Source: Bactericera cockerelli (taxonomy: Eukaryota; Arthropoda; Insecta; Hemiptera; Triozidae). From it: DNA of 64,000 nucleotides. Every line of letters starts with the position of its first letter. Position 1 is the first letter of the stretch. Shown here piece by piece: positions 7,901 to 64,000 of this stretch. A program made the position numbers and the translations under genes. Under the pieces are notes generated by a model. The model was not told where the DNA came from and ran no database searches. It saw nothing but the letters and a program-made list of their open reading frames with translations. The DNA is taken from the NCBI GenBank assembly GCA_024516035.1, contig CM044965.1:25201993-25265992 (forward strand), read 5' to 3'.

Positions 7901-10900
7901 CTAAAAACACAAAAATGACAGTTTATAAAACGGTATACACCCCTACATTGACTTACGGCCTGGAAAGTGCAGTTTTGACCTCAAAAGAAAGACAAACCAT
8001 CCAAACAGCAGAAATGAAATACCTCAGAAGATCACTTGGAAAAACCCGCAGAGACAAAATAAGAAATACCAAAATCAGAGAGGATACAGGACAAAAAGAA
8101 CTACTGAAAGACATAGAAAAACAACAACTAAGATGGTTTGGACACGTCATCAGAATGCCTGAAACAAGAATCCCTAAACAAATATTGGAATGCAAACCAG
8201 AAGGTAGAAGAGGAAGAGGAAGACCAAGACAAACATATGAAAATACTATAACTGAAATAGCTAAAGCAAGAGGGAAATCCTTTTCTGAGGTCAAAAGAAT
8301 TTCCAGGCAAAGGAATGATTTCCGCCGTTGGATAAACGAGGAACCCGACGCTCGTTAGGGCATAAGGGAAAAGACAAAGAAGAAGAAGTTATACACAGGT
8401 ATAGAGGTGCGGGTATAGTCCAGATCAATCGCATTGCTCCATCTAACAATACCCTCACCCAGCCTGGTTTGGGTCAAAAATGACAAGGTATGATTCATTA
8501 GGCCCTACTCACCAGGTCATTGCTCTAGTTATGCACAGATATAGAGGTGCGGGTATAGTCCAGATCAATCGCATTGGTCCATCTAAAAATACCCTCACCC
8601 AGCCTGGTTTGGGTCAAATATGACAAGGTATGATTCATTAGGCCCTACTCACCAGGTCATTGCTCTAGATATGCACAGATATAGAGGTGCGGGTATAGTC
8701 TAGATCAATCGCATTGGTCCATCAAAAAATACCCTCACCCAGCCTGATTTGGGTCAAAAATGACTAGGTATGATTCATTAGGCCCTACTCACCAGGTCAT
8801 TGCTCTTGTTATACACAGATATAGAGGTGCGGGTATAGTCCAGGTCAATCACATTGGTCCATCTAACACTTACCTCACCTAGCCTGGTTTGGGTCAAAAA
8901 TGACATGACGTGATTCATTAGGCCCTACTCACCAGGTCATTGCTCTTGTTATACACAGATATAGAGGTGCGGGTATAGTCCAGATCAATCACATTAGTCC
9001 ATTTAACACTAACCTCACCCAGTCTGTTTTCGCATTGGTCCATCTAAAAATACCCTCACCCAGCCTGGTTTGGGTCAAAAATGACAAGGTATGATGCATT
9101 AGGTCCTACTCACCAGGTCATTGCTCTTGTTATACACAGATATAGAGGTGCGGGTGTAGTCCAGATCAATCATATTGGTCTATCTAACACTAACCTCACC
9201 CAGCCTGGTTTGGGTCAAAAATGACATGGTATGATGCATTAGGACCTACTCACCAGGTCATTGCTCTTGTTATACACAGATATAGAGGTGCGGGTATAGT
9301 CCAGGTCAATCACATTGGTCCATCGCTCCACAAGTTTAATCTCAGAGCCCAGAACATATGAGTAGAAGCAGAGGAAATTGACAGAGAGATAGAGGTACCC
9401 TGGGCGCGGTATACGATACCCTTTGGGTTGATATCTGTAAAAAGAAAGAAATTTTCAATTTTAATTTTTTTTAAATATCACTTGATCGATAAGGCGTGGA
9501 CTTGTAGCCTGGAGGTCGGTGGTTCAAGTTCCAAGTTAAGGAAATATTTAGCAATGCGAGTTTGAGTAGTTGTGATATCACGATTGTGATTAACACAAAT
9601 ATGATAACTTTAAAGATATTTTTTTTTGTCTGCGTCGATGGCGCGTTGAATGCACCGGTTCTTGTATCACCGATGTTAACCAACGATGTTAGCGAGGTGA
9701 AGACTTCGCGATGCTGGCATTCCGGCCCAACCCAGGCTGGGTGAGGTTAATGTGGGTAGCAGGTTTCTGTGTTTCCTGCGAGTGAAGGGTAACACCCAGG
9801 CGCGGCCGGTGGGAAAATATTTGGGGGTGCTGCGCCACATAAACCGGTCTACAATGAGATTTTTCGAGTCACTCTTTCAGTATCTATAGAGTTTGAGTTT
9901 GTTAACCATGCCAATCATAATAATTATTCATTCATTCTTCTAGAATGCAGCCTCCGTGGCGTAATGGTTGTGACTACTGCCCGTAGTCCAGAGTTCCCGA
10001 GTTCAACTCCCGGCTGGGGCAGACTTTTCGAAGAAAATTCTGTTCCATCCAAACACGTGAGGCTGCCATTTCCGGCCCTACCCAGGCTGGGTGAGGTTAA
10101 TGTGGGTAGCTGGTACGATTCCCAGCGAATGGAGGGTAAAACCCCCGTCCTAATCCAGGACGTTAAATCAAGTAGAATCGTTGGCGTTAGGAAGGGCATC
10201 CAGCCATAAAAAAACGTGCTCCACCCTACCAACCTCAACCATGAGGTTGAACAATGCCGACCCCAAAAGCAACATAAGCTAATATGGGATAAAGGCAAAG
10301 GAGATATATATTCATTCTTCTAGAAATGTTTGATGGTTTTCATTGTATATGAGCTAGGGACTTGAGAAAATCCTCTCTTTTTCCTTTTCGCCTGGGAGTG
10401 CTGCAGTTCCGCAGCTCCTTGGCACCGGCCACGCCTTGTAACACCCCCGTCGTGATATGACCATGCAGTTGAAATCGACGATAAACCCAAATTAAAAAAA
10501 ATATTTTTAAAAAAAGAAATTTTAATTAAAAAAAAAAACGATGAAACAGAAATAGAGAGGTAGGTTCTTATTAGTACTTATTTAGTCTCAGTGGGCATGC
10601 GGTGTATCCAATCATTTTTCCATAAATAGTTTTTGTGCAAATTTTTCCATAAATAGTTTTTGTGCAAAAAAAAATATATTTTTAACCGAACGCACTGAGC
10701 AAGCGAAGCGACATTACTATGTGAGGTTCTGTTTTAACTTGGGTACTGGACGATTTTTGACTTTCGTTTGTCTGTCTGTCTGTTCCGCGATAACTCCCGA
10801 CCAGATTCTTAAAAATTGTTGAAATTTAGCATACACGTTCATTGGGGTTCTAAAATTTTACATGTTGTTTTTGGGCCGATTTGGGCCACTCGGGACCGCA

Positions 10901-13690
10901 TGGGGGCCGTTTTGGTGAAAATCAAAAATGATTGTTTTTAATTTTATTTAATAAAGCAATCTCCTTAATATTTTTTAGAGTCGTTAAAAAATAATATTTG
11001 ATATCAGTAGTGAACTTTTGTGGTCGTGAAAGCTAAGGGGGACGGACACCCTGTGGTAAAAAATCGAAAAAGAGCACCAAAAAAGGGTCAACCGGTCCTA
11101 ATTTTTAATTAAAACCCATCGAGTGGTGTATTAAATAAAAGGTCTCGATATCCTCATAATTGATACGACATTTATAATTTGAAAATAGAATCTGTGTGAG
11201 ATTTACAGTTTGCAGAACTACTAGTAACTATACTTACGAACAAAGATAATAGTTGATGAGCTTCTCCTCAGGATGTAACTCAAACAGTTGAACAAACTTG
11301 GAACATGTGGCTTGGAAATGTTTCCTCTCATCATCTGATGGGAGACAAAATAAAATTAGTATTTGATTTAGCACAAATTCATAGTTATGTGATGACTTGA
11401 AAAAAAAAATGTGAAAATCTTTCACGATGCAATTTATTTTGTTAGTAGCTATTGTTGTAGCCAGCTTGTCTACAGCTGGAGGGGGAGAGATGGTCTCCAA
11501 CCAACTATATTTCAAAGTTGCCTCGTCTAGAAATCTAGTACATATCGTTTTTGAGCTATTGAGGTTTGGAATGATTATTTAAATAAACAAAGTATTTTTA
11601 CTATTTTTTTTTTACACCTTTTTTTGTATTTTGTAGCCATGAAACAGCAGCTACTGTAGACACTTGGGGTCTGTGTTGTAGCTTGCCCAACTTGTAGCAT
11701 GCTTCCCTTTTGTGAGAAGTGACACAATACTTCCATTTTATGTGTTGGCTCAACAAAGTGCACCAGAAGGTATCCCTTACAAACAACTGTCACCAAATTT
11801 TGAATACAATTTTTTTGACAGCTCTGGGGATCAAACTGGGTATCTTCTGCATGGCAAATGAGTATCTTACCACTGAGCTATCTGTGTACTCATATAAGTA
11901 TTTCAATTTAAGTAGTAGTAGTAGTAGTAGTATTTATTTTATTATGATTGAGCACCAAGTCCTTCAAGTCCTTTTTAACTGAAGACAGCTATTTTAGCCT
12001 ATATCTTGGTATTATTTGCTCTCTCATTTGCAGGAAACTTACAAACCTGCTACCCACATTGACCTCACCCAGCCTGGGTTGGGCCGGAATGCCAGCATCA
12101 CAAAGTCTTCACCTCGCTTAACTTCAGTGATTCTACAAGAACTGGTGCATTCAACGCACCATTGACGCTGGCTATTTCAATTTAAGAATTAAAAAAGTCT
12201 CACCTGTGCTGTCAACAATATAAATATTATTGTCAATAGCAAGACTGCTGATTTTGGTGATGACAAATTTCAACTTGTCGACTTCCTCAGCTTTCTCGTT
12301 AACCATGTCAATGTTTGTTTGCAGCCACTGCCAATCTTTGAGTATTTCTTCTTTTCTAGTGGCCACGGAAATGACTGAAACATGAAAGAATAATTTTTTA
12401 TTTTCACTTTGGTGGGAAGAAAATTTTTTTATCAAACTTGTATTAATTTTGAAAAAAAAAAAAAATCACCTTTTTTCATAAACAACAGAAAGATAAATTT
12501 TTCTTTCTTTTTTTTTCAAGTGCCAACAGAATGAAAATAATAAAAATAAGTAAAAATAACAATTAGTTTTTATGGCATGGATACATAATAAATTCATGCA
12601 TTGAGATTAATTTGAACTATTGGATCCTTCTCTATGCTGGATGGATATCTAGACTATCATTAAAAAAAAACCTTGGAAAATAAAATGGTTAAATAAATAG
12701 ACTCACCATAGAAGTAATCCTCATCATGCTTTGGGCTATGCAGTAGGATTCTGAAAGGAGGGGGCCTAGCATTCCATAGAGTATCTAATGTTCCGATAAC
12801 TTTGGACTGCAATGTCATGGCTTCTCCATGACCTTTCCGCTTCTGAAGCATGAAGTAGAGACTGATCTCCACATCATCCCTGGAAGAAAGGTAGATCAGT
12901 ATTGTCATTGTTTCATTTTACAGTTTTTTCATTAAAATCCCCTTGAAGTACAAGGTCTGTTGTACTTTTAATATCAATAGTTTAAACAATTATAGCTGGG
13001 GTGATGATTGACCCCTATTAACTTGCTATGAAAATAGAAAGGTGCACATTACTTGTCCTGGTAATTCAGTGGTCAAGGTATCTTTAATCCAGAGGTCATG
13101 GGTTTGAAGTCCAGATGTGATATGACAAATTTTTCCCTCATTTGGGATTTGGAACACATAATAATTCATCTTGGGCTTGCAACTGGAATAATGGGACTCT
13201 TTAGTTCTAATCGGACGGTGTAATTAATATGATATTATTATCATTACTACTTGTTGCATCAGGATTCAGGTTCCGGGTTTACACAAAGTATAATTTTTCT
13301 GAAACCCACTGCTTGTGTTAATATTATAATTTATAATATGTTGCCTCAGACTTTTTTGAAACCTACATAGCTAATAATTTTACAAGTTATGTTAAATCAT
13401 AACTTATGGGGTCCGTTCTGAAAAATCATGAGCGATAAGAGGTACAAGGATTAAACTTATCAAACAATTACTGAATGATCAATTGGTTTTCTGTAACTGA
13501 TTCCACCCTTATTTTATTAGCATATTTACTCCCATAATTAGGCCCCAAATGATTTAAAACACAATATTAAGTGATTGTTTACACTATTTACATAAACCAA
13601 AGTAGGAATCTCTAGCATTCAATTTACACTCAAAGAATCTTACCAAAATGAGATTATAGGGGGATCTATTTTCTTCGGTTTAATCCACAT
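4858..13690 (-). CDS. TBC1D8/TBC1D9-like Rab GTPase-activating protein, N-terminal part
   Basis: Six coding exons on the minus strand (13690-13644, 12879-12707, 12374-12204, 11334-11238, 9434-9254, 4934-4858) join with consistent phases into about 249 codons starting MWIKPKK. The product has the family's N-terminal order: a [11 protein letters not shown] motif near residue 27, a helical linker, then a GRAM domain (about residues 150-235) with EEKLINYY and [17 protein letters not shown]. In known members GRAM domains bind membrane lipids and a later TBC domain accelerates GTP hydrolysis by Rab proteins in vesicle traffic. The second GRAM, TBC and EF-hand parts would lie left of the window. The intron between exons 5 and 6 carries a 3.2-kb LINE. 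The gene is divergent from CAD. The call rests on family motifs recalled from TBC1D9/TBC1D8; I cannot separate the paralogues. Confidence 0.8.
5101..5173 (-). repeat. Left fragment of the exon 5 donor array
   Basis: This repeats the end of TBC1D8/9-like exon 5 with its donor (in reverse, AGCAATAACTTG|GTAAGTGG). It was separated from the main array at 8388-9253 by the LINE. It also contains an inverted 'attgctc/gagcaat' foldback and two copies of GTTATACACAG. Confidence 0.7.
5174..8387 (+). mobile_element. Non-LTR retrotransposon (RTE-like LINE), near intact
   Basis: About 3.2 kb with one long ORF, a short (GAA)n 3' tail and no poly-A. It is flanked by GTTATACACAG at 5163-5173 and 8388-8398, an 11-bp target-site duplication. 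Array units of TBC1D8/9-like exon 5 lie on both sides, so it landed inside that array and is younger than it. Fragments of the same or a related family lie at 26258-26325 and 31116-31468. The clade assignment is inferred from domain order and the tail. Confidence 0.85.
5356..8358 (+). CDS. LINE polyprotein: APE endonuclease plus reverse transcriptase
   Basis: The frame is open from the stop at 5353-5355 to TAG at 8358. The first in-frame ATG is at 5512, but homology-like sequence ([19 protein letters not shown]) begins before it near 5458, so the true start is uncertain or the 5' end is slightly truncated. The N-terminal third is an apurinic-type endonuclease with [18 protein letters not shown] and STDHYLL motifs. 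The middle is a reverse transcriptase with [11 protein letters not shown] (motif A region), [11 protein letters not shown] and the catalytic FADD box ([13 protein letters not shown]). The C-terminus has [13 protein letters not shown] and a basic [10 protein letters not shown] tail. It copies its own RNA at a nicked target site. No internal stop or frameshift is seen, so activity is possible. Confidence 0.85.
8399..9322 (-). repeat. 140-bp tandem array of TBC exon 5 donor junction
   Basis: Units start (TATAGAGGTGCGGG) near 8399, 8540, 8680, 8820, 8960 and 9141, and the last one near 9281 is the real exon 5. Each unit has about 69 nt of exon end, the donor (reverse: GACCTG|GTGAGTAGG) and about 70 nt of intron. 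The intron part includes a segment resembling the shared SINE core (CACCCAGCCTGG). Spacing is 140 bp, except one unit of 181 bp that carries an extra internal duplication. The unit length is not a multiple of three. Confidence 0.9.
9254..9434 (-). CDS. TBC1D8/9-like exon 5 (GRAM domain core)
   Basis: The acceptor is TTTTTACAG and the donor CTG|GTGAGT, 181 nt, phase 2 to 0. It encodes [17 protein letters not shown] and [15 protein letters not shown], the central strands of the GRAM domain. Its 3' end is the source of the adjacent 140-bp array, so six or more further copies of its donor lie downstream in the intron. Confidence 0.85.
9478..9610 (+). repeat. tRNA-headed SINE (family 5) fragment
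   Basis: It carries 'cttgatcgataaggcg', a box-B-like GGTTCAAGTTCC and the tail 'gttgtgatatcacg'. Better copies are at 28211-28360 and 53345-53495; a minus copy is at 54075-54190. Confidence 0.6.
9797..10437. mobile_element. Non-autonomous hAT-like element with 8-bp TSD
   Basis: The 5' end CAGGCGCGGCCGGTG and 3' end CACCGGCCACGCCTT form an imperfect inverted repeat. GTAACACC lies immediately outside both ends (9789-9796, 10438-10445). Without the nested SINE it is about 260 bp. Truncated relatives are at 3055-3320 and 20818-20935. Confidence 0.75.
9946..10309 (+). repeat. tRNA-headed SINE (family A), full, with TSD
   Basis: A 364-bp copy with A box (GTGGCGTAATGG), B box (GAGTTCAACTCCC) and core CCCAGGCTGGGTGAGG. 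It is flanked by the 16-bp direct repeat ATTCATTCTTCTAGAA (9930-9945 and 10310-10325). It is nearly identical to 14248-14626, suggesting recent activity. It sits inside the hAT-like element. Confidence 0.9.
10685..11145. repeat. Unclassified dispersed repeat
   Basis: It contains AACCGAACGCACTGAG and a TTTGTCTGTCTGTCTG run followed by 'gataactcccga'. The first part recurs at 16747-16820 and weakly at 49094-49125. No ORF and no clear termini are visible. Confidence 0.4.
11238..11334 (-). CDS. TBC1D8/9-like exon 4
   Basis: 97 nt, acceptor CCCATCAG, donor TC|GTAAGT. It encodes [19 protein letters not shown] and [10 protein letters not shown]. The 'F..LF.lp..EKLvnYYsCsy' pattern marks the entry into the first GRAM domain of TBC1D8/9 proteins. 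The phases (1 in, 2 out) fit its neighbours. Confidence 0.85.
11440..11540 (-). repeat. Dispersed repeat fragment
   Basis: Reverse copy of the repeat at 190-312 (CTCCAACCAACT core). Confidence 0.5.
11600..11885 (-). repeat. tRNA-derived SINE (family 2), diverged
   Basis: Reverse-strand copy of the family at 4381-4687. The body is 'gtagccatgaaacagcagc' and a degraded tRNA-like head lies near 11815-11885. A (AGT)n run follows at 11912-11930. Confidence 0.65.
12032..12172 (-). repeat. 5S-derived SINE, 5' part
   Basis: In reverse complement it reads GCGTTGAATGCACCAGTTCT, AGTTAAGCGAGG and the CCCAGGCTGGGTGAGG core. It lies 32 bp downstream of TBC exon 3's donor. Confidence 0.7.
12204..12374 (-). 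CDS. TBC1D8/9-like exon 3
   Basis: 171 nt, phase 1 to 1, acceptor CATGTTTCAG, donor ACAG|GTGAGA. It encodes [19 protein letters not shown] followed by a lysine- and glutamate-rich helix. The DWqWLeqNl motif corresponds to the EHWEWLEQNL region upstream of the GRAM domain in TBC1D9. Confidence 0.8.
12707..12879 (-). CDS. TBC1D8/9-like exon 2
   Basis: 173 nt, acceptor CTTTCTTCCAG, donor TATG|GTGAGT. It encodes [19 protein letters not shown] and later [19 protein letters not shown]. The YF.LQrRKGHG motif followed by PyRILyqtP is diagnostic of the N-terminus of this Rab-GAP family. Confidence 0.85.
13053..13235 (+). repeat. tRNA-headed SINE (family 3), diverged
   Basis: It resembles 27305-27510: a degraded head (TGTCCTGGTAATTCAGTGG), then 'gatatgacaaat', then 'aataatgggactc'. 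It lies in TBC intron 1. The remainder of the intron (13236-13643) shows nothing recognisable. Confidence 0.6.
13644..13690 (-). CDS. TBC1D8/9-like exon 1 (start codon exon)
   Basis: It begins with ATG (13690-13688) in the context GAAAATGTGG and encodes [15 protein letters not shown], then phase-2 TG before GTAAGA. The TBC1D9 family starts MWvnPeEvl, which supports both the start and the first splice. No promoter motif is identifiable upstream; transcription start would lie to the right of 13690. Confidence 0.75.
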
Positions 13691-23095: not shown

Positions 23096-23201
23096 ATGTC
23101 AAAACCGTTGGAGTCAAAACCGGCCTACCTAATCCTGCAAGACGGTACCGTCCTTGAGGGTGTCAGCTGTGGCGCCCATGTACCCAGCGAGGGAGAAGTG
23201 G
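23096..23201 (+). CDS. CAD: CAD exon 1 (start)
   Basis: ATG at 23096 in the context GCGCCATGT (G at -3). It encodes [20 protein letters not shown] and on to GEV, ending phase 1 at G|GTAAGT. The protein starts slightly longer than the mammalian enzyme. This is the start of the small-domain barrel of the glutaminase half. Confidence 0.9.
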
Positions 23202-27634: not shown

Positions 27635-27666
<32 letters not shown>

Positions 27667-34694: not shown

Positions 34695-34735
<41 letters not shown>

Positions 34736-35712: not shown

Positions 35713-35751
<39 letters not shown>

Positions 35752-49161: not shown

Positions 49162-49193
<32 letters not shown>

Positions 49194-58100: not shown

Positions 58101-61100
58101 AACTTATGTCATTATTTACACAGCTTACTCTTCGTTTCCATGACAACACGATTGTAATCAAACAATTTTATTTCAGTTTTAATTAGTTTAATTTTTAGTC
58201 TCTAATTAGTCTATATTCTTTTTCTATCTATATTCTATTATATTAAAGTGGTGTTTTTCAACTTTTTAGTTATATACACCAGTCTCTAATTAGTAATTTA
58301 AGATAAATGTGAAACACATACTTTGTATATATTTATTCACAATAAACATTTGATTGATTTCAGGGCCGTTTAACATGCAACTGATCGCTAAAGACAACGA
58401 GCTCAAAGTGATAGAATGTAACGTCCGAGTGTCTCGTAGTTTCCCCTTCGTATCGAAGACCCTGGACTTGGACTTCGTTGCCATGGCAACTCGTGTGATC
58501 GTTGGCGAAATCGTGGAGCCAGTTGATGTGGTCAGGGGCAAGTCCAAGGTGGGGGTAAAAGTGCCCCAGTTCTCCTTCTCGAGACTCACAGGGGCGGATG
58601 TGATGCTGGGAGTGGGGATGGCCTCCACTGGTAAGTTTTATCTCTATGTATAAAACAGAAAAAAGGACTACCTACCTACCTATGTTTGTTTGTCCGGAGT
58701 TGTTTAGCCTAAACGGTAAGAGATAGCGAAAAATGTCTCAGAATTGACCCCCCCAAAACCATTATTGCTTTGTTCAGAAAAATTATAAAAAGTTCAAAAA
58801 GGCATTGCTGTCCAGCAGTACGGCCATGCCTTAGTAAATTTGAAATTTAGTGCCGTTGCAAAGCACGGGCGAACGGCTAGTAATTTAATTAAAATAAAGA
58901 GCTGGTTATTTTTGTTATTCTGTGTTATTTTAGTGGGTAGAATCGACATTACGAGAACTAATGCTATTTCATCATATCTCCAACACACCATAATCGTTCA
59001 ATATCAATCTCGTAATGCCGCCACTGGTTGTTGCCCACTCTACAACTACCCCAGTTGTACTCAGGAGGCTAAAGTAGGTTATTATTATTATTATTATACA
59101 ACGCTTTATTAGGTATAAATGGACATTATGTACATAGAAATAATTAATTTAACAATGAAAAAAATGGAAACAATATATACAATGAAAATGAAAAAGAATA
59201 GAAAATATAAAACAAAAACATAAGTCCTAACTAAAGGGCGGGGTTATTGCCTATGGCAATCTCTTCCACCCAACCCTTTCTCTTCAAAGCATAGAGTGGA
59301 AAAATTCTCACCCCGCCGGGTTTCGAACCCAGGTCACCTGTTTTTTTTTCAATTATTTTTTTAAATCTACGTCGATGGCATGTGTATTACAACAGTTCTC
59401 GTTCTGTCTCTGAAGTTCAGCAACGTCTAGCGAGGCTATTATTTGGATGGACCATTCAAATTCGGACCCTCATGAAGATGGCTCTTATCCGACCCCACTC
59501 AGGCTGGGTAAGGTTAATTTGAGTAGCCGGTTTCTGAGTTTCCAGCGAATAGAGTGTAAAAACCTTGTCGTTAAATGACCATGCAGTTAAAAGGAAAAAA
59601 TTGGTTTCCTTAAAATTGTAACTTTTTTTACATACGAATTGATTCCCATTACGGGAACCAATTCGTACCTAGTCAGTTCATAAGTGACACGTTTTAACAA
59701 CTTTTTTTTTAAATTATCTAATCTTTTTTTAACTATCTTTTTTTCTTTTTTAATTATAATTTAATTTTAATTATCTAATTATCTAATCTAACCTTTTCTT
59801 ATTTGCCCAGGTGAAGTGGCGTGTTTCGGAGACAACATCTACGAGGCGTATCTGAAAGCCATCATCGCCAGCACAGGGTTCACCTGCCCCACCAAGGCTG
59901 TGCTGCTGTCCGTGGGAGGGATCAAGCAGAAGGAGGAACTACTGGAGTCCATCTGTCTGCTGGAGAAACTGGCGAAGAAGATGGGGTTCAAAATATACGC
60001 CAGTAGCGGCACCGCGGACTTCTATAGCGTGAAAGGTAAACAAAAAGGTTGCAATCTCACCAGGTCGCAGTGTTAATTAATTATACTCTTTACTGGAAGG
60101 TAAACTTCCAGTAACAAAAAAATAAAAGAAAAAAAAACATGTTTTTCAAGCTAGGGGTTTGGCTGTGGGGTAATGACCCACACCAGTAAAATCATACATA
60201 TTGTGGAACCAGATAGCAGCCTTCTAAATTTAAAGTAACACAAAACAAGAATCATCAACACACTTACCTAACATGAAGATTATTGCACAAGACAAGAAGG
60301 AGGAATCAAGACCCCCCGGAGAGAGTAAAGAAGCAACTGAGTGAGCGAAATAGATGTAGGTAATTAATGGAAAAGCTGTTTTCTGGAGGTCTGGAGAAAA
60401 TTGTTTTCAAAATTTGGTTACAGTTGTTTGTAAGGGATACCTTCCGGTGCGCTCGTGTTGACTCAGCACCTAAATGAGAAGTATTATGTCACTTCTCGCC
60501 CATCAGAGGGGAGGCATACTAGAGGATGGGCAGGCTACAACACAGACCACAAGCGTCTACAGTAGCTCCTGTTTCATGGCTACGAAATAAAGTGGCTGTG
60601 AAACACTCATTATTTTTAAAATAATAATTTCGCCTTATTTTTACTGCTCGATTAGTGAGTCCCATTATTCCAGCAGTAAGCCCAAGACGTATTATTATGT
60701 GGTCAACATCTCAAATGGGAGGATAACATGTCATGTCCCGGCTGGGTTTCGAACCCGCGACCTATGGCTTACCAGTGAGACGCCTTGACCACTGAGCTAC
60801 CGGGACTATATAATTTTAAATCTTTTTCATTTAATTTTACTCGTATTTCAGCAAATAAGCTGAATTGGAACCAGTTGTTCTGATATAATCTGATATCATC
60901 ATCATAGGGTGGCGTCATCGTGAACGATGGTAGCCAGACAGTGGAGGAGTTACTCAGCACTTCTACCACTGTCTTTACAAGGAGGCTAATAATTGACAAG
61001 GGCCCCCAGAACCAAGTAAATGCTGGTCTACTCCCTGTTTATAGTCCCCCAGCCAGACTGCTGGTCTACGCCCTGTTTATAGTCCCCCAGCCAGACTGCT

Positions 61101-61416
61101 GGTCTACTCCCTGTTTATAGTCCCCCAGCCAGACTGTATAATCTGATATATGTAAGAATTTTGATTTATGTAATATTTATGTTCCAAATAAAGATTTATT
61201 TATTTTAGTATTATTTTTATTATAGGAATCAAAGGTATCGAAGTGGTGGAACACGAGTGGAAATTTGACAACCTCGGAGAAGAAGACATCAGTGGAAACA
61301 ACGGGAGTGAACTGAACAGCATGGCAGACTATCTGGCGAGGAAACATTTCGACCTAGTCATTAATATTCCACTGAGAAGCGGAGGTGTGAGACGGGTGTC
61401 TTCATTCATAACACAG
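23096..61416 (+). CDS. CAD: CAD (rudimentary): GATase-CPSase-MGS part, 21 exons, 3' end outside window
   Basis: Twenty-one exons join without frame conflict into 4302 nt (1434 codons). CAD is a cytosolic fusion enzyme of de novo pyrimidine synthesis; this part makes carbamoyl phosphate from glutamine, bicarbonate and two ATP. Residues 1-405 are the small-subunit-like glutaminase with Cys263 (GICLGHQ), His347 and Glu349 (SVQFHPEH). Residues 406 to about 1295 are the two CPSase halves, each with a pre-ATP-grasp fold and an ATP-grasp site. From about 1296 the MGS-like domain begins, which in known CAD binds UTP and PRPP. RRVSSF (Ser1429) matches the PKA-type site of mammalian CAD. Dihydroorotase and aspartate transcarbamylase should follow to the right. 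All introns are GT-AG. Many junctions carry tandem copies of themselves. Confidence 0.95.
23540..24250. repeat. SINE cluster in CAD intron 1
   Basis: 23540-23745 is a minus-strand tRNA-headed SINE (reverse head: GACCTCCGTGGTTCAGTGG and GGGTTCGAATCCC). 23800-24000 is another family (copies at 32530-32790 and 53884-54080). 24038-24250 is family 4 on the plus strand (GGTAGTCAAGTGGTTAACG head, GTTCGAATC box B). Confidence 0.7.
24256..24390 (+). mobile_element. TA-type MITE copy
   Basis: Contains GACGTTTTTGTAATACCTCT, GGCGCTAAGTCACGGATTGC and ends 'ctattaatttcgct'. It is diverged from the consensus copy at 33711-33841. A piece of SINE family 4 (24395-24480) follows. Confidence 0.75.
24487..24626 (-). 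mobile_element. TA-type MITE copy
   Basis: Reverse orientation: starts GGGGCGGAATTACTAGAC, ends ATCTATTAATTTCGCCCTA. About 138 bp with inverted ends. Positions 24640-25330 after it hold a GC-richer stretch, an 'aataaaacttgac' LINE-type tail and a small ORF without recognisable product. Confidence 0.8.
25537..25955 (-). repeat. Dispersed repeat plus 5S-derived SINE, reversed
   Basis: 25537-25735 matches the repeat at 190-312. 25745-25955 is a 5S-derived SINE (reverse: GCGTTGAATGCACCAGTTCT, AAGCAACGTTCAGCGATG, core, GTTAAATCC tail). Confidence 0.7.
26258..26325 (+). mobile_element. 3' end fragment of RTE-like LINE
   Basis: Encodes [15 protein letters not shown] and ends in (GAA)n, as does the LINE at 5174-8387. 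The preceding 26080-26250 resembles Helitron-like sequence (GAGATATCGG, CGGAGCACGGGTGAA). Confidence 0.4.
26349..26422 (+). repeat. tRNA-like SINE head
   Basis: CACTGTGGCCGAATAGTG and GGTTCGAATCCCAGTGCAG give A- and B-box-like parts. The body is not recognisable. Rejected as a tRNA gene because the anticodon arm cannot be folded convincingly. Confidence 0.4.
26430..26797 (+). repeat. Acceptor-side array of CAD exon 2, ~38 bp x 10
   Basis: The unit is pyrimidine-rich: CCGTTTCATTTCC then G/A-A/G-TGTTCCAATTCAATTCTC. The last unit reads TTTCATTTCCAG|TGTTCCAGAC, that is, the true acceptor plus the first bases of exon 2. The array therefore amplified the acceptor including exon bases. Earlier units mostly have GA or CA instead of AG. 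Confidence 0.85.
26791..26929 (+). CDS. CAD: CAD exon 2
   Basis: 139 nt, phase 1 to 2. Encodes [20 protein letters not shown] and [13 protein letters not shown], the most conserved stretch of the CPSase small subunit. Acceptor ATTTCCAG, donor CAA|GTGAGT. Confidence 0.95.
26926..26982 (+). repeat. Donor array of CAD exon 2, 20 bp x 3
   Basis: AAGTGAGTAGCGATAACTGC is repeated head to tail, giving three identical CAA|GTGAGT-like donors; the third unit is cut short. Confidence 0.9.
26990..27195 (-). repeat. SINE family 3, reversed
   Basis: Reverse tRNA-like head (GAGCTACC..., GGGTTTCGAACCC) at 27117-27195. The 3' end lies at 26990 (AATATCGCCTTATTTATAC). Confidence 0.75.
27305..27510 (+). repeat. 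SINE family 3, best copy
   Basis: The head GGGTAGCTCAGTGGTCAAG plus box B GGGTTCGAAACCC is tRNA-like. The tail 'gataacttgtcatg' (reverse sense) and 'ataatgggactc' end in ATTATTATTC. Head-to-head with the copy at 26990-27195. Confidence 0.8.
27521..27870 (+). repeat. Partial acceptor-side duplication of CAD exon 3 with inserted MITE
   Basis: ATATTTCTCTGAACTC follows an ATTCTCAG at 27510-27540 and recurs at 27847-27870 before the true acceptor CATTCTCAG. Between them lie a poly-T run (27637-27660) and a TA-type MITE at 27717-27843 (GGGCGGAATTAATAGAC to GTCTATTAATTCCGCCC). Confidence 0.6.
27871..28141 (+). CDS. CAD: CAD exon 3
   Basis: 271 nt, phase 2 to 0. Encodes [40 protein letters not shown] and HGVVGGRIV, the rest of the small-subunit barrel and linker. 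Donor AAG|GTAAGT. Confidence 0.95.
28205..28605 (+). repeat. SINEs in CAD intron 3 (families 5 and 3)
   Basis: 28211-28360 is family 5 (TTGATCGATAAGGCGGCGG head, GTTCAAGTCCC box B, GTTGTGATATCACG tail). 28425-28605 is family 3 (CCGGTAGCTCAGTGGTTAAG, GCGGGTTCGAAACCC). Confidence 0.75.
28899..29033 (+). CDS. CAD: CAD exon 4
   Basis: 135 nt, phase 0 to 0. Encodes [20 protein letters not shown] then KYNQLRCL and VVPWDHPIK. It starts the class-I glutamine amidotransferase fold: [12 protein letters not shown] is the first strand and nucleophile-loop support. Donor AAG|GTACTT. Confidence 0.95.
29041..29160 (+). repeat. SINE family 4 fragment at exon 4 donor
   Basis: Begins 8 bp after the donor with '...CCAGGTAGTGTAGGG' and GTTCGAATCCC, then the 'gtgcatgaatttttcctca' tail. 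The tRNA-like 5' half is missing. Confidence 0.65.
29157..29416 (+). mobile_element. Two TA-type MITEs in tandem
   Basis: 29157-29286 and 29287-29416 are consecutive copies (each GACGTTTTTGTAATACCTCT ... GTCTATTAATTCCGCCC) sharing 'ttaagccgtaataatt' at their borders. Confidence 0.85.
29417..29850. mobile_element. Third MITE split by a family 2 SINE
   Basis: The left MITE part is 29417-29433 and the right part 29740-29850 (TTTGTAATACCTCTGTGGCG onward). Between them lies a reverse-strand family 2 SINE (29434-29739) with a clear tRNA-like head (reverse: CAGTGGTTAAGCACTCG, CGGGTTCGAACCC) and a T-rich left end. A piece of SINE family 4 follows (29855-29940). Confidence 0.8.
30023..30213 (+). CDS. 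CAD: CAD exon 5 (glutaminase nucleophile)
   Basis: 191 nt, phase 0 to 2. Encodes [16 protein letters not shown] and [17 protein letters not shown]. Cys263 in GICLGHQ is the nucleophile that hydrolyses glutamine. Donor GAA|GTGAGT. Confidence 0.95.
30286..30415 (+). mobile_element. TA-type MITE copy
   Basis: GGGCGGAATCAATAGACG to GTCTATTAATTCCGCCC, about 130 bp, inside the exon 5 donor array. Confidence 0.85.
30421..30607. mobile_element. Small TIR element (GGTATGCAGAG)
   Basis: Starts GGTATGCAGAGTCC and ends GTCTCTGCATACC, an 11-13 bp inverted repeat around 187 bp of non-coding sequence. It directly follows the MITE. No clear target duplication. Confidence 0.6.
31116..31468 (+). pseudogene. 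LINE reverse transcriptase C-terminal fragment
   Basis: Encodes [20 protein letters not shown], a W.WRR motif and [14 protein letters not shown], the region after the catalytic core in RTE-like LINE proteins (compare YGLESAVLT and [10 protein letters not shown] in the element at 5174-8387). Truncated at the 5' side. A 5S-derived SINE follows at 31495-31710. Confidence 0.75.
31495..31710 (+). repeat. 5S-derived SINE
   Basis: TCGTTGAATACACCGGTTCT, AAGTTAAGCAACGTCC and TTAGGACTTGGATG are clear 5S rRNA-like blocks. The shared core and 'gaccatacagttgaa' tail follow. Confidence 0.8.
31928..32055. mobile_element. Diverged MITE
   Basis: Starts AGGGTGAAATTAATAGACA, ends 'tattaactttggccttaa', with the 'agaggtattacaa' segment inside; an older copy of the 130-bp family. 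From 32056 to 33700 I see AT-rich sequence, a SINE-like piece (32530-32790) and no exon. Confidence 0.55.
33711..33841 (+). mobile_element. TA-type MITE, consensus-like copy
   Basis: GGGCGAAATTAATAGACG to GTCTATTAATTCCGCCC with TTAA on both sides. TIRs of about 18 bp. TTAA or TA as target duplication cannot be separated. Directly after it, a 50-bp segment (GGTGACACTCATAT) is present twice upstream of exon 6. Confidence 0.85.
33982..34167 (+). CDS. CAD: CAD exon 6
   Basis: 186 nt, phase 2 to 2. Encodes [24 protein letters not shown] and [16 protein letters not shown], the amidotransferase region between the nucleophile and the His-Glu pair. Acceptor TATTTCAG, donor CAG|GTAAAT. Confidence 0.95.
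34262..34738. repeat. LINE-type 3' tails
   Basis: 34262-34460 on the minus strand (reverse: GGCAATAACTCCGCCCTTTA) and 34520-34738 on the plus strand (GGGTTGGGTGGAAGAGATTG, AATAAAGCTT, then about 45 A). Similar tails: 4100-4292, 45616-45680, 59085-59285. Confidence 0.65.
34936..35122 (+). CDS. CAD: CAD exon 7 (glutaminase His-Glu)
   Basis: 187 nt, phase 2 to 0. Encodes [20 protein letters not shown]; His347 and Glu349 complete the catalytic triad with Cys263. Its end (SFETPKK) is the linker to the CPSase domain. Donor AAG|GTGAGT. Confidence 0.95.
35085..35560 (+). repeat. Donor array of CAD exon 7, 3 copies
   Basis: The exon end GAACAGCTCATCGCCGAGTC ... CCTAAAAAG|GTGAGTC recurs at about 35367-35420 and 35498-35555 (one has AACGTGAGT). 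Copies 2 and 3 share a ~131-bp unit. A dispersed repeat (35155-35290), also at 60893-61137, separates the exon from copy 2. Confidence 0.85.
37146..39997. mobile_element. Nested TIR element (CCCAGACGGCAC)
   Basis: Starts CCCAGACGGCACATAAGG, ends TTTCTGTGCCGTCTGGG; GTTGTACT lies just outside both ends (with two extra bases at the left). Subterminal CTTGTAAAAATAAGCTTTA motifs occur in both ends. The termini resemble those of the host element, so both belong to one superfamily. Inside: minisatellite fragment (38222-38300), a ~130-bp tandem repeat (38430-38780) and core-SINE pieces (39050-39270). No transposase. Confidence 0.75.
38430..38780. repeat. Tandem repeat, ~130 bp x 3
   Basis: The unit contains CTCAGGCTGAGTGAGGTGAA, GGGTAGCTGGTACTATTCCC and 'aaataaatctgttctctg'. 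It appears to be an amplified piece of SINE family A. Confidence 0.8.
40018..40437 (+). mobile_element. Helitron-like element with inserted SINE
   Basis: Starts TCTCTATTATATAAAACTC after an A and ends TTTTAGCTAG before a T, fitting Helitron rules (TC start, CTAG end, A|T insertion). SINE family 4 occupies about 40177-40380. The second copy is 43449-43871. Confidence 0.6.
42196..42395 (-). repeat. SINE family 4, reversed
   Basis: Reverse: CTGGTAATCCAGGTAGCG head fragment, TTCGAAGCCC, GGTAGAAAATGCTTTGAGC tail. It lies between the two large TIR elements. Positions 42545-42681 are the A-rich side of a reversed LINE tail into which copy 2 inserted (the tail resumes at 45616). Confidence 0.7.
42682..45615. 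mobile_element. TIR element copy 2 (CCCAGACAGCAC), uninterrupted
   Basis: 2.93 kb, termini as in copy 1. It contains the Helitron-like element (43449-43871) and the same 5S-like remnant (44020-44105). It lacks the nested element. No transposase or long ORF. Confidence 0.85.
45676..45989 (+). repeat. Acceptor-side array of CAD exon 8, 16 bp x ~19
   Basis: Unit CATTATCTCTGTTATT (some TTCTT). The last units read CATCTTCTCTGTTCGTCCCAG and end exactly at the exon 8 acceptor, so the polypyrimidine tract itself is the repeat. Confidence 0.9.
45990..46190 (+). CDS. CAD: CAD exon 8 (CPSase begins)
   Basis: 201 nt, phase 0. Encodes [20 protein letters not shown] and [20 protein letters not shown], the pre-ATP-grasp fold of the first CPSase half. 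Donor CAG|GTAAGG. Confidence 0.95.
46833..46940 (+). CDS. CAD: CAD exon 9
   Basis: 108 nt, phase 0. Encodes [20 protein letters not shown]. The donor CAG|GTAAGT is followed 24 bp later by a second ATCAG|GTAAAC. An RT-like scrap ([10 protein letters not shown]) lies just beyond, at 46976-47030. Confidence 0.95.
46976..47030 (+). pseudogene. Tiny reverse-transcriptase relic
   Basis: Encodes [14 protein letters not shown], resembling the A motif (K-A-F-D-R-V) of non-LTR reverse transcriptases. Nothing else of the element is recognisable. Confidence 0.35.
47429..47554 (+). CDS. CAD: CAD exon 10
   Basis: 126 nt, phase 0. Encodes [20 protein letters not shown] and [16 protein letters not shown], the start of the first ATP-grasp domain. 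Donor GAG|GTGAGA. Confidence 0.95.
47540..47880 (+). repeat. Donor array of CAD exon 10, ~138 bp x 2.5
   Basis: AGAGGTGAGATTGTC followed by TTAGCGCGGCGGTCTACGAA recurs at about 47690 and 47827. Each later copy is preceded by a diverged exon end (GTGTGTAGC.. for GTGTACAGC). T-runs occur within each unit. 47909-48100 is a reversed SINE family A piece. Confidence 0.8.
48360..48500 (+). pseudogene. Displaced copy of CAD exon 15 acceptor and 5' end, in intron 10
   Basis: TTTTTTTTTCAG|GACTATCAATCGACAAGCTC through 'accaagatagacagg' repeats the start of exon 15, then diverges to GTGGTGCACCGCGCCG. It sits 5 kb upstream of the real exon and shares its downstream part with the copy at 52690. The reading frame does not continue, so it is a decoy or relic. 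Confidence 0.85.
48536..48757 (+). CDS. CAD: CAD exon 11 (first ATP-grasp site)
   Basis: 222 nt, phase 0. Encodes [20 protein letters not shown] (glycine-rich ATP loop) and [19 protein letters not shown]. Donor ACG|GTGAGT, the first of twelve near-identical donors. Confidence 0.95.
48740..49035 (+). repeat. Donor array of CAD exon 11, 25 bp x 11
   Basis: ACGACAATTGTATCACG|GTGAGTGT starts at 48741, 48766, 48791 and every 25 bp to 48991: eleven perfect units, then a degenerate one at 49016. Each contains the last ~17 exon bases and a full GTGAGT donor. The perfection implies very recent expansion or active homogenisation. Confidence 0.95.
49340..49745 (-). pseudogene. LINE polyprotein C-terminal fragment, frameshifted
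   Basis: On the minus strand, [19 protein letters not shown] and [16 protein letters not shown] lie in one frame, then [14 protein letters not shown] in another. This 'DPTvRFE...IY...IP...Y...V.GL..GsRGai' series occurs at the C-terminus of some non-LTR retrotransposon proteins. A frameshift separates the halves. Confidence 0.6.
49823..50026 (+). CDS. CAD: CAD exon 12
   Basis: 204 nt, phase 0. Encodes [20 protein letters not shown], then GECNIQYAV and DYYIIE, part of the first ATP-grasp active site (the Glu-rich end binds metal with exon 13's EVNAR). Donor GAG|GTAAGT. Confidence 0.95.
49966..50600 (+). repeat. Donor array of CAD exon 12, 89 bp x 7
   Basis: Unit starts (GGGCGAG) at 49966, 50055, 50144, 50233, 50331 (9 extra bp before it), 50420 and 50509. 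Each unit has 61 exon bases, the GAG|GTAAGT donor and 28 intron bases CTTTCCCGGCCCCACTCAGG-type, which resemble the shared SINE core. A diverged copy is displaced to 51442-51570 in intron 13. Confidence 0.95.
50690..50993 (+). repeat. Acceptor-side array of CAD exon 13, ~31 bp x 9
   Basis: Unit ACCCCTTCATTTTATCTCTC plus 'atattaaaa'. The final unit ends TTTTATCTTCCCAG at the exon 13 acceptor. As at exon 8, the pyrimidine tract is the repeat. Confidence 0.9.
50994..51212 (+). CDS. CAD: CAD exon 13
   Basis: 219 nt, phase 0. Encodes [20 protein letters not shown], then [10 protein letters not shown] and [15 protein letters not shown], the end of the first ATP-grasp domain ([20 protein letters not shown] is near-invariant in CPSases). 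Donor AAG|GTAAGA. Confidence 0.95.
51192..51380 (+). repeat. Donor array of CAD exon 13, 42 bp x 4 (in frame)
   Basis: GTATCTACCAAG|GTAAGRAATGAG starts at 51201, 51243, 51285 and 51327, with a broken fifth near 51372. The unit is 14 codons and the exon frame reads through all units ([12 protein letters not shown] pattern) to a stop at 51384. Downstream donor use would add 14-residue repeats without a frameshift. Confidence 0.95.
51661..51862 (-). repeat. SINE family 4, reversed, full
   Basis: Reverse: GTGCACTGGTAGTCAAGTGG head, GGTTCGAATCCC box B, GGTAGAAAATGCTTTGAGC body. One of the best copies in the window. Confidence 0.8.
51947..52142 (+). CDS. CAD: CAD exon 14
   Basis: 196 nt, phase 0 to 1. 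Encodes [20 protein letters not shown] and [16 protein letters not shown], entering the CPSase oligomerisation domain. Donor ATG|GTAAAA. Confidence 0.95.
52361..52510 (-). mobile_element. Helitron-like fragment
   Basis: Reverse strand ends GCCGGGTCTTAGCTAG followed by T; shares 'gaggacatagtcagcc' with 40018-40437 reversed. A (CTATA)n microsatellite lies at 52571-52637. Confidence 0.5.
52571..52637. repeat. (CTATA)n microsatellite
   Basis: About 13 repeats of ACTAT upstream of the exon 15 pseudo-copy. Confidence 0.95.
52680..53330 (+). pseudogene. Copy of CAD exon 15 acceptor region, split by a LINE tail
   Basis: TACTTTTCAG|GACTGTCAATCGACAAG starts at 52691 and runs to 'gtattcaaatta'. After 52769-53265 (a reversed poly-A LINE or SINE tail flanked by CAAATTACTT-like repeats) it resumes TTTGAAGTCCCATTTGGAC as at 48460. 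It is therefore the same duplication unit as 48360-48500. Positions 53345-53495 are SINE family 5. Confidence 0.75.
53531..53730 (+). CDS. CAD: CAD exon 15
   Basis: 200 nt, phase 1 to 0. Encodes [20 protein letters not shown] and [20 protein letters not shown], the helical oligomerisation domain. Acceptor TTCTTTTCAG, donor ATG|GTGAGT. Confidence 0.95.
53884..54500. repeat. SINE fragments in CAD intron 15
   Basis: 53884-54080 (family also at 23800-24000; GAATCGAACCC end), 54075-54190 (family 5 reversed) and 54420-54500 (tail of family 4). Confidence 0.6.
54535..54962 (+). CDS. CAD: CAD exon 16 (second CPSase half begins)
   Basis: 428 nt, phase 0 to 2, the longest CAD exon here. Encodes [45 protein letters not shown] and [15 protein letters not shown], the second pre-ATP-grasp fold. 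Donor CAG|GTAGGT. Confidence 0.95.
55754..55998 (+). repeat. 5S-derived SINE, full length
   Basis: GCGCGTTGAATGCATCGGTT, GAAGTTAAGCAACGCCCAG, the core CCCAGGCTGGGTGAG, the 'gaccatgaagttaaaagcg' tail and A-run. The best single copy of this family. 54963-55740 before it shows nothing recognisable. Confidence 0.85.
56020..56345 (+). repeat. Acceptor array of CAD exon 17, 6 copies
   Basis: CAG|ACAGAACGC occurs near 56034, 56074, 56114 (ACAAAACGC), 56188, 56265 and the true 56329. Copies 3 and 4 extend to 'aagcacctc', matching the exon's 'tgggcacctc'. Units are spaced 40-77 bp and contain 'gtttctttgttaattta'. The last is the real acceptor. Confidence 0.85.
56329..56563 (+). CDS. CAD: CAD exon 17 (second ATP-grasp site)
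   Basis: 235 nt, phase 2 to 0. Encodes [20 protein letters not shown] and [20 protein letters not shown], the glycine/serine ATP loop of the second half, which phosphorylates carbamate. Donor CAG|GTGAGT. Confidence 0.95.
56767..57031 (+). CDS. CAD: CAD exon 18
   Basis: 265 nt, phase 0 to 1. Encodes [20 protein letters not shown] and [20 protein letters not shown], core of the second ATP-grasp domain. Donor CAG|GTACAC. Confidence 0.95.
57425..58165 (+). repeat. Acceptor array of CAD exon 19, 4 decoy copies
   Basis: Decoys begin (CAG|GGYCGTTYAACATGCAACTG) near 57504, 57727, 57882 and 58032; the real exon is at 58364. Each decoy keeps about 60 exon bases up to 'gaatgtaacgt' and then jumps to 'tactatggcaac', a later exon-like phrase. 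Between them: 'tttccatgacaacacgattg'. A 45-60 bp upstream tract with its CAG is copied too. Confidence 0.9.
58364..58630 (+). CDS. CAD: CAD exon 19
   Basis: 267 nt, phase 1 to 1. Encodes [38 protein letters not shown] and [20 protein letters not shown], the end of the second ATP-grasp domain with the metal-binding ECNVR. Donor CTG|GTAAGT. Confidence 0.95.
58641..58880 (+). mobile_element. Helitron-like non-autonomous element, 240 bp
   Basis: Begins TCTCTATGTATAAAAC after A and ends GCACGGGCGAACGGCTAG before T. The GC-rich 3' end can form a short hairpin (GCCGTT...AACGGC). It starts only 10 bp from the exon 19 donor. These are standard Helitron end rules. Confidence 0.75.
59085..59600. repeat. 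LINE-type tail (reversed) and 5S-derived SINE
   Basis: 59085-59285 is a reversed tail (GGGCGGGGTTATTGCC). 59367-59600 is a 5S-derived SINE with AAGTTCAGCAACGTC, TTTGGATGGACCATTC (5S-like box C region) and the core. Confidence 0.7.
59811..60035 (+). CDS. CAD: CAD exon 20 (MGS-like domain begins)
   Basis: 225 nt, phase 1 to 1. Encodes [20 protein letters not shown], then [19 protein letters not shown] and [13 protein letters not shown]. The SGTADFY phrase matches the methylglyoxal-synthase-like allosteric fold. Donor AAG|GTAAAC. Confidence 0.95.
60410..61137. repeat. Repeat cluster in CAD intron 20
   Basis: 60410-60620 SINE family 2 body (+). 60625-60812 SINE family 3 (-). 60893-61137 is the repeat also seen at 35155-35290 (GATGGTAGCCAGACAGTGGA), ending in three reversed copies of the 40-bp minisatellite. 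60060-60400 shows nothing recognisable. Confidence 0.75.
61226..61416 (+). CDS. CAD: CAD exon 21
   Basis: 191 nt, phase 1 to 0. Encodes [40 protein letters not shown] and RRVSSFITQ. Ser1429 in RRVS corresponds to the PKA site (Ser1406) of mammalian CAD. Donor CAG|GTAACA. This is the last complete CAD exon in the window. Confidence 0.95.
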
Positions 61417-62015
61417 GTAACAGGAAACATTAGAGTAACATTTCAGGAAACTGAACAGCATGGTAGACTATCTGGCCAGGAAACATTTCGACTTGGTCAT
61501 TAATATTCCTCTGAGAAGCGGAGGTGTGAGACGGGTGTCTTCATTCATAACACAGGTAACAGGAAACAATAAACAGGAAACATTAGAGTAACATTACAGG
61601 AAACTGAACAGCATGGCAGACTATCTGGCCAGGAAACATTTCGACCTTTTCATTAATATTCCTCTGAGAAGCGGAGGTGTGAGACGGGTGTCTTCATTCA
61701 TAACACAGGTAACAGGAAACAATATACAGGAAATATTAGGGTGACATTACAGGAAACTGAACAGCATGGCAGACTATCTGGTCAGGAAACATTTCGACTT
61801 GGTCATTAATATTCCTCTGAGAAGCGGAGGTGTGAGACGGGTGTCTTCATTCATAACACAGGTAACAGGAAACAATAAACAGGAAACATTAGGGTAATAC
61901 TACAGGAAACTGAACAGAACTGAACAGCATGGCAGACTATCTGGCCAGGAAACATTCCGACCTGTGGTCATTAATATTCCTCGGAGGTTTAAATTGTTTC
62001 CATAACACAGGTAAC
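61310..62015 (+). repeat. Donor array of CAD exon 21, ~150 bp x 5
   Basis: Donors (ACACAG|GTAACAGG) follow 61416, 61556, 61708, 61861 and 62010. Each repeat holds about 110 exon bases (GAACTGAACAGCATGGCAGA onward), the donor and ~40 intron bases. The last is eroded. Each downstream copy is preceded by ACATTACAG or a similar acceptor-like end, so each could define a complete mini-exon, but not in the conserved frame. Confidence 0.95.
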
Positions 62016-63091: not shown

Positions 63092-63228
63092 TTGACTTCA
63101 TGAGTAAAAGTTTCACTGTAAATGCTGCCAGATTGTGGAATCAGCTTCCAGAGGAACTCAGAGTCTTGGAAAGTCGTACGTTATTTAAGATGAAATCAAA
63201 GGAATACATTTTTGCATTGGATCAGTGA
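63092..63228 (+). pseudogene. C-terminal fragment of a CR1/jockey-type LINE protein
   Basis: Encodes FTVNAARLWNQLPEELRVLE and SRTLFKMKSKEYIFALDQ then stop. 'ArLWN.LPeelR...s...FK.k.k..l' is the usual end of this reverse-transcriptase type. The following 63250-63600 (T-runs, GAATGCCGTTGGCATTAGCA, then AATAAAACTTGATTGAA and a TAA-repeat end) is its likely 3' UTR. Similar tails lie at 24930-25130 and 46280-46345 (-). Confidence 0.7.
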
Positions 63229-63808
63229 TACTGTATATATGTTGTATTGTATAATTGTGTAGCCCTCCTTTTTTTTTTTTTTTTTTTTTTCTTCTTCCCC
63301 CTTTTTTTTTAACCCCCCCCCCCCCATCCCATTAACCCATATTTTATTTTATTTTTCTTCTTTTATGTATATAGTTTATTTTATTTTTCTTCTTCTATTT
63401 TTTTTTTTTTTTTTTTTTGTAACTTAAATTGTCTTCTTTTTTTTTTTCTCTCTTTTATCTTTTTTTTTTATCAAGGGTGGTGCGGAAGAGAATGCCGTTG
63501 GCATTAGCACCGCCCTTGATCAAGTTTTGTTTTCTTAATTTTATTATCTATGTGTGTATATATTTTATGTCATTATTTTGTAAATAAAACTTGATTGAAT
63601 TTGTTTAATAATAATAATAATAATAATAAAATTTCGTCAATAAATTTGCTATTTTAATTTAAATAAAAAGTGTGATGTCTAGCCCACTGTGTCATAGTTA
63701 ATGACATGTGCTGGGCTAGATCATGTATTAAGTGTCTTATCGGTTAATTTGTTTATACTCTTTTTTCCTCCAATTTTTTCTCACCAACTCTACCTCTGTG
63801 GTTTCCCA

Positions 63809-63833
63809 GGGCTATCGCACCCGGCGGCTGGAT
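63809..63833 (+). pseudogene. CAD: Copy of the CAD exon 22 acceptor and 5' end
   Basis: GTTTCCCAG|GGCTATCGCACCCGGCGG encodes GYRTRRL, which follows exon 21's product in known CAD. It breaks off after 23 bases into unrelated 'ttcttattattatta' sequence. The upstream phrase CAACTCTACCTCTGTGGTTT recurs at 63946-63968, as in the other acceptor-side arrays. The functional exon 22 is expected just right of the window. Confidence 0.75.
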
Positions 63834-64000
63834 TCTTATTATTATTACTGCCGATATATTTCTAATATTAGAAATCGGAAGTATGTATTGTTTTCGTTTT
63901 TGTATTTTTTTTTTTTTTAAATATTTTTTCGTCCAATTTTTTTTTCATCAACTCTACCTCTGTGGTTTTACTTCCTGGATATTTTAATAATTATTAAAAA

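What the first reader, a model, noticed from the sequence alone, without database searches (positions are those of the whole stretch)
8399..63968. Exon-intron junctions of two genes are repeatedly tandem-duplicated, creating arrays of decoy splice sites
At least eight donors (TBC exon 5; CAD exons 2, 5, 7, 10, 11, 12, 13, 21) and several acceptors (CAD exons 2, 8, 13, 17, 19, and 22 in part) sit at the edge of arrays whose unit contains exon bases plus the splice site. Unit lengths run from 16 to about 150 bp and copy numbers from 2 to about 19. Ordinary intronic minisatellites should not stop at junctions so often. Inference: a duplication process active at junctions (for example at R-loops, or by microhomology around AGGT/CAG), or selection tolerating only duplications whose proximal copy stays functional. 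Donor arrays keep the true site upstream of the copies, and acceptor arrays keep it downstream, as expected if the exon body is protected.
Basis: partly seen in the sequence, partly recalled or inferred. Interest (0 to 1): 0.93.

Follow-up and report, generated by a model that had tools for sequence, protein, structure and literature searches.

The report
Splice-site-copying repeat arrays in psyllid genes
In this sap-sucking insect (a psyllid), short stretches covering the border between an exon and an intron have repeatedly been copied in tandem, leaving rows of look-alike splice sites beside the real ones; the same structure was described earlier in lancelets, and it offers a natural test of how cells choose the right splice site.

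Summary
The arrays are real, with corrections. CAD was modelled as 21 GT-AG exons (1434 aa, no stop); the closest listed protein is CAD of the psyllid Cacopsylla melanoneura (87%), so the host is a psyllid. One detector finds 12 of 49 in-window splice junctions inside local duplications (9 donors, 3 acceptors). The structure matches lancelet 'mirages'; my searches listed none in insects. Best mechanism: frequent local duplication, tolerated at exon edges because one intact site stays joined to the exon. Excess over uniform tolerated placement is 5.5- to 7-fold in the window and 3.5-fold in the CCT genes (p 0.001; 0.036 if junction copies stay detectable twice as long). Targeted duplication is possible, not shown.

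The parts
23096..61416 (+). CAD gene, exons e1-e21 (first 1434 codons; the gene goes on beyond the window)
   Evidence: 21 exons, all GT-AG, no stop; 87% identical to Cacopsylla melanoneura CAD over 99%
9254..12879 (-). TBC1D8/9-like gene, four modelled exons t2-t5 with a GRAM domain
   Evidence: exons joined in one open frame; Pfam GRAM E 4.8e-13
8387..9324 (-). Array at the TBC exon t5 donor, unit 140 bp, 71 exonic bases; five further CTG|GTGAGT copies
26444..26797 (+). Array at the CAD e2 acceptor, unit 39 bp, 7 exonic bases; 0 of 4 listed copies keep AG
26927..26980 (+). Array at the CAD e2 donor, unit 20 bp, 2.7 copies, 3 exonic bases, two exact decoy donors
30213..30285 (+). Duplication at the CAD e5 donor, unit 34 bp, 1 exonic base; a related array of the same unit lies at 30612-30751
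35078..35582 (+). CAD e7 donor: exon tail from 35078 and two further copies (35365-35431, 35497-35564) inside a 133-bp array at 35290-35582; 45 exonic bases
47535..47877 (+). Array at the CAD e10 donor, unit 136 bp, 20 exonic bases, two decoys of equal score
48739..49041 (+). Array at the CAD e11 donor, unit 25 bp, 12.1 copies, 19 exonic bases, ten identical decoy donors
   Evidence: the 25-mer occurs 11 times in the assembly, all here
49965..50600 (+). Array at the CAD e12 donor, unit 89 bp, 7 copies, 62 exonic bases, six identical decoy donors
51192..51367 (+). Array at the CAD e13 donor, unit 42 bp, 4.2 copies, 21 exonic bases, three decoys that would keep the frame open
56020..56345 (+). 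Array at the CAD e17 acceptor, units about 40/76 bp, 17 or more exonic bases, 5 of 5 listed copies keep AG
57440..58424 (+). Array at the CAD e19 acceptor, unit about 149 bp, 61 exonic bases, 4 of 4 listed copies keep AG
61310..61963 (+). Array at the CAD e21 donor, unit 153 bp, 107 exonic bases, decoy donors of equal score
45682..45982 (+). 16-bp array just before the CAD e8 acceptor; does not contain the splice site
50706..50992 (+). Array just before the CAD e13 acceptor; does not contain the exon edge
63774..63968 (+). Partial copy of the e22 acceptor (exon-like GYRTRR.. from 63810) and the start of a second copy; the true exon is outside the window
48346..48443 (+). Dispersed copy of the CAD e15 acceptor with 66 exonic bases in intron 10; a second copy is at 52667-52769 in intron 14

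Best explanation
These are psyllid 'mirages': minisatellite-like duplications that span exon-intron borders. Local duplications are common in these genes (14-21% of intron bases in the CAD, TBC, septin and GDPD genes; 1-19% in six CCT genes). One that falls wholly inside an exon breaks the protein and is lost. One that covers a donor or an acceptor leaves one complete splice site joined to the exon body, so the extra copies become intron and the allele survives. The array then grows, shrinks and decays like other minisatellites. The cell uses the copy joined to the exon; most decoys would shift the frame or meet a stop, so their use must be rare or the faulty mRNA is destroyed. Shown: the arrays, their span, the intact decoy signals, recurrence in other genes and contigs, absence inside exons. 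Inferred: the duplication mechanism (slippage or template switching), the splice choice in RNA, and neutrality. Because selection preserves the copy that is used, such pairs should also stay recognisable longer than intron pairs, which may explain part of the remaining excess.
For: 12 of 49 junctions in the window, 7 of 53 at four loci outside it, and 8 of 84 in five of six CCT genes taken by Pfam family. Intron share in arrays. No repeat pair wholly inside an exon in 18,848 exonic bases. The exonic share of the unit fits uniform (KS p 0.41, n = 12). 33 of 37 listed donor decoys score at least as high as the true site, and 28 of 31 CAD donor decoys shift the frame or meet a stop. The model shows no gap against Cacopsylla CAD within 12 residues of the array-bearing junctions. 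An array also runs over the CAD stop codon, another exon edge where one copy can stay intact.
Against: Even in the CCT genes the number of junction arrays exceeds uniform tolerated placement (8 of 29 against 2.28, p 0.001; still p 0.036 with 2x detectability), and at the four neighbouring loci too (7 of 25 against 1.22, p 1.2e-4; 0.005 with 2x, 0.035 with 3x). No RNA was seen, so use of the exon-joined copy is inferred from protein comparison. Some exon edges outside the window rest on consensus only.
Confidence: 0.62

Rival explanations
1. Duplication is targeted to exon edges, or to exons as such, for example by R-loops, transcription-coupled breaks or GC-rich DNA, and selection then keeps only the edge-covering cases.
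For: Excess over uniform tolerated placement in three samples: 12 against 2.2, 7 against 1.22, 8 against 2.28. In the first sample it stays when only sequence within 200 bp of a junction is allowed (12 of 16 arrays, 4.22 expected, p 2e-5).
Against: The excess shrinks from the chosen window to unselected genes, and a 3-fold detectability advantage makes the CCT sample non-significant (p 0.17). The junction can lie anywhere in the unit. Coverage per base shows no clear excess (12 of 49 against 16.2% of intron bases).
Confidence: 0.25
2. The decoys are useful, as spare splice sites or as a brake on expression, and selection keeps them.
For: Decoy signals are intact: 33 of 37 listed donor decoys score at least as high as the true site.
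Against: Neighbouring arrays share no unit, length or position, the e2 acceptor copies have lost AG, and intact signals are expected in young copies anyway. Some junctions of the same genes have none (GDPD 0 of 9; CCT gene on C6 0 of 12).
Confidence: 0.05
3. The arrays, or their copy numbers, are assembly artefacts.
For: Only one assembly was seen. Identical short units such as e11 are easily miscounted.
Against: Copies differ among themselves (74-100% identity to the exon), units differ from junction to junction, arrays occur on six contigs, and a LINE sits inside the TBC array with array sequence on both sides.
Confidence: 0.04
4. The arrays are relics of intron gain by tandem duplication of an AGGT-containing exon piece (Rogers model).
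For: The lancelet authors propose that mirages can create introns (PMC3087553, passages).
Against: Donor and acceptor regions of the same CAD intron are no more alike than those of different introns (mean local score 8.1 against 8.3, 20 introns).
Confidence: 0.02

Closest known systems
Lancelet 'mirages' (Adh3, globins BflGb6 and BflGb9, troponin C, PGBD5); passages of PMC3087553 and PMC3902484 seen
   Same: Minisatellite-like tandem copies of exon-intron borders, at donors and acceptors, units of tens to about 160 bp, many copies with intact splice signals
   Different: Here in an insect, and in most genes examined rather than single reported genes. Length and somatic instability, reported in lancelets, could not be tested.
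Variable internal tandem repeats at human exon-intron boundaries (PMC2812944, passages seen)
   Same: Minisatellites at boundaries, about 30-bp units
   Different: There in recently duplicated primate genes, where they alter the transcript; here the protein model is undisturbed
Intron gain by tandem duplication in Drosophila (PMC2891723, passages seen) and potato RdRp (PMC4974935, search listing only)
   Same: Tandem duplication that includes splice-site sequence
   Different: No sign of new introns here: the two ends of one intron are no more alike than ends of different introns

Membership tests
Mirage (as described in lancelets) | Tandem minisatellite-like copies spanning an exon-intron border | tested here: met
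   12 of 49 junctions in the window; 7 of 53 and 8 of 84 elsewhere
Mirage (as described in lancelets) | Both 5' and 3' borders affected | tested here: met
   Donors 12 of 50 and acceptors 7 of 52 on contig C11 (Fisher p 0.21); 4 of 42 each in CCT genes
Mirage (as described in lancelets) | Many, not all, copies keep the splice signal | tested here: met
   Kept at most donors and at e17 and e19, lost in 4 of 4 listed e2 acceptor copies; listed copies keep GT or AG in 7 of 8 CCT arrays
Mirage (as described in lancelets) | Regular mRNA splicing is not disturbed | not testable with these tools
   No RNA at hand; only the protein comparison is consistent
Mirage (as described in lancelets) | Length differs between haplotypes; somatic instability | not testable with these tools
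   One assembly only
Intron gain by tandem duplication (Rogers model) | The two ends of the intron are copies of one another | tested here: not met
   Mean local score 8.1 for same-intron ends against 8.3 for ends of different introns
Duplication by AGGT/CAG microhomology | Breakpoints at the splice-site motif | tested here: inconclusive
   Junction position in the unit fits uniform (KS p 0.41, n = 12); of five array edges listed, two (e2, e5) lie 1-3 bases from the splice site and three (e11, e12, e13) do not

The most novel reading that the evidence does not exclude
In psyllids roughly one splice junction in ten across the genome carries decoy splice-site arrays, because duplication starts preferentially at exon edges or in exons, and the splicing machinery picks the site joined to the exon with high fidelity among up to ten identical competitors within a few hundred bases.
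Probability: 0.25. Interest if true: 0.85.

Novelty: new member of a known kind. Interest (0 to 1): 0.62.

Why it matters
The papers seen describe mirages in a handful of lancelet genes. The same structure in an insect, in most of the genes examined, would make it a broad mode of gene evolution. It offers ready-made tests of how one of many identical splice sites is chosen, supplies raw material for new introns and alternative exons, and warns that gene prediction and short-read assembly can stumble at such junctions.

Tried and rejected
Lancelet origin of the window: rejected, since the best listed CAD match is a psyllid (87%) and the next is 71%. Diaphorina citri: its CAD-like model is 93% identical over 142 aa (exons 12-13), so another species. 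Rogers-type intron gain: not seen. GC bias of arrays as the cause: intron-only arrays have a mean GC of 0.34 against 0.35 for introns. BLAST self-comparison misses short-offset arrays; it found 9 of 41 CAD junctions against 17.6% of far-intron positions, no clear excess; a dedicated scan replaced it. Not resolved: species name, CAD exons from 22 on up to the N stretch and beyond (residues about 1432-1650), TBC exon 1, and a duplicated TBC piece at about -30 kb (left out of the counts). mis-set one exon end (C8 e5) and gave 7 of 84; one search corrects it to 8 of 84. Exon edges uncertain by a few bases or more: several TBC edges outside the window, one CAD acceptor near 76.7 kb, C1 e7 start, C4 e6 start, C5 e5 end and e8 start; the ones named here were counted as not spanned. 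Earthworm metallothionein paper (PMC12783039, passages): intron repeats, not used.

Full report
What the window is. Homology-guided modelling gives a CAD gene on the + strand with 21 exons, all GT-AG, 4302 coding bases and no stop. The best of the 120 listed proteins (7980 scored) is CAD of the psyllid Cacopsylla melanoneura at 87% identity; the next is 71%. Within 12 residues of the array-bearing junctions the model shows no gap against that protein; Periplaneta has a 4-residue gap just upstream of the e7 junction. A TBC1D8/9-like gene runs on the minus strand: four exons in the window hold a GRAM domain and the TBC domain lies further left. The assembly has 565 Mb in 1032 contigs; no tool names the species.

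Checking the observation. Tandem Repeats Finder and an own ungapped scan of offsets 10-600 with low-complexity filters agree in the main. In the two genes there are 25 arrays, the intron-4 and exon-5 arrays counted apart, and 12 cover a true junction: CAD donors e2, e5, e7, e10, e11, e12, e13, e21, the TBC exon-5 donor, and CAD acceptors e2, e17, e19. The arrays at the e8 and e13 acceptors stop short of the exon, and the e2 acceptor copies have no AG. Of 34 copies of exon fragments found elsewhere in the window (at least 8 exonic bases), 33 include a junction; the other is a piece of the exon-12 array at 51444-51511.

Decoys. 33 of 37 listed donor decoys score at least as high as their true site on a recalled donor table. 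Of the 31 in CAD, 28 would shift the frame or meet a stop; the three in the exon-13 array are in frame and open. The nine listed e17 and e19 acceptor copies keep AG; eight meet a stop, and the e17 copy 63 bases upstream is in frame and open.

How surprising is it? Two tests disagree, and both are told. Per base, junctions are not remarkable: 12 of 49 covered, against 16.2% of intron bases and 26.6% at 13-23 kb. Per event, if each array starts as one duplication placed uniformly where it would be tolerated, 2.2 junction arrays are expected among 25 and 12 are seen (p 1.3e-7; p 7e-5, 0.0016 and 0.010 if junction arrays stay detectable 2, 3 or 4 times as long). With clusters counted whole the figures are 12 of 24 against 1.76. 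I think the event test is the better model, since an array cannot swallow the exon body, but the window was chosen because it looked striking.

From 200 kb of flanks: the rest of the TBC gene has 3 of 14 junctions in arrays, the rest of CAD 1 of 17, a septin gene 3 of 13, a GDPD gene 0 of 9; together 7 of 53 junctions, and 7 of 25 arrays against 1.22 expected (p 1.2e-4; 0.005, 0.035 and 0.10 with 2x, 3x and 4x detectability). In the septin gene the exon S2 donor has seven further listed copies and the exon S7 acceptor three upstream copies. An array also covers the last 19 coding bases of CAD and runs past the stop codon; it is left out of the junction counts.

Genes chosen without regard to repeats. 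CCT chaperonin genes were taken by Pfam family. Six loci were fetched, on contigs C1, C3, C4, C5, C6 and C8; not fetched were second copies on C1 and C3, two loci on C8 (11.62 and 11.95 Mb) and three single matches. 8 of 84 junctions lie in arrays, 4 of 42 donors and 4 of 42 acceptors, in five of six genes; 8 of 29 arrays against 2.28 expected (p 0.001; 0.036, 0.17 and 0.36 with 2x, 3x and 4x detectability). Listed copies keep GT or AG in 7 of the 8. Intron share in arrays is lower here, 1-19%, against 14-21% at the first loci. Over the eleven gene sets no repeat pair lies wholly inside an exon in 18,848 exonic bases. The share of affected junctions falls from 24% in the window to 13% nearby and 10% in the CCT genes, as expected when the first case is picked for being extreme.

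Mechanism. The junction can sit anywhere in the unit (exonic fraction 0.03 to 0.76, KS against uniform p 0.41, n = 12), so the splice motif is not a clear breakpoint, though n is small. Intron-only arrays have intron-like GC. Dispersed, rearranged copies of the exon-15 acceptor look like template switching; that is inference. The best reading is frequent local duplication plus tolerance where one full splice site stays joined to the exon, with longer detectability of junction pairs as part of the excess. A junction- or exon-targeted process is the main rival.

What is known. Lancelet papers describe the same structure as mirages (passages seen: PMC3087553, PMC3902484); both say that splicing appears undisturbed. 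Human boundary repeats (PMC2812944, passages) and Drosophila intron gain (PMC2891723, passages) are more distant. In ten searches of the held library no listed title or abstract reports such arrays in psyllids or other insects; one search listed only 15 of 1,408 papers, and the library lacks most subscription journals. In the psyllid genome paper PMC12203342 a term search found 'tandem' 0 times, 'intron' twice and 'splice' once (12 of 19 places shown).

Noticed in passing
5356-8358: A 1000-aa open frame of an endonuclease plus reverse transcriptase element (LINE, RTE-like by recall) lies in the TBC intron; array sequence occurs on its other side too (5097-5138), so it probably inserted into the TBC array.
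   Followed up: partly
19639-20454, 61021-61136, 34752-34818, 35251-35290, 38221-38299, 47-120: One 38-bp satellite-like unit occurs at several places in both orientations.
   Followed up: partly
48346-48443 and 52667-52769: Two dispersed copies of the CAD exon-15 acceptor share changes with each other that the true exon lacks; next to the first lies a piece also found upstream of exon 15 (53267-53326), suggesting rearranged template switching.
   Followed up: partly
G000:C11:25288481-25288758 (in L011): A 2-copy-like array of about 145-148 bp covers the last 19 coding bases of CAD and runs past the stop codon: an exon edge that is not a splice site.
   Followed up: partly
G000:C1:46332789-46345999 and G000:C3:37510024-37527305: Second copies of two CCT genes lie 0.26-0.37 Mb from the first ones; gene duplication or uncollapsed haplotypes.
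   Followed up: no
L029, reverse strand, exon ending at 1595: A CCT4 intron seems to start with GC (AAG|GCAAGT) instead of GT.
   Followed up: no
15907-16394: Imperfect (CTCCTT)n array of about 490 bp between the two genes.
   Followed up: no
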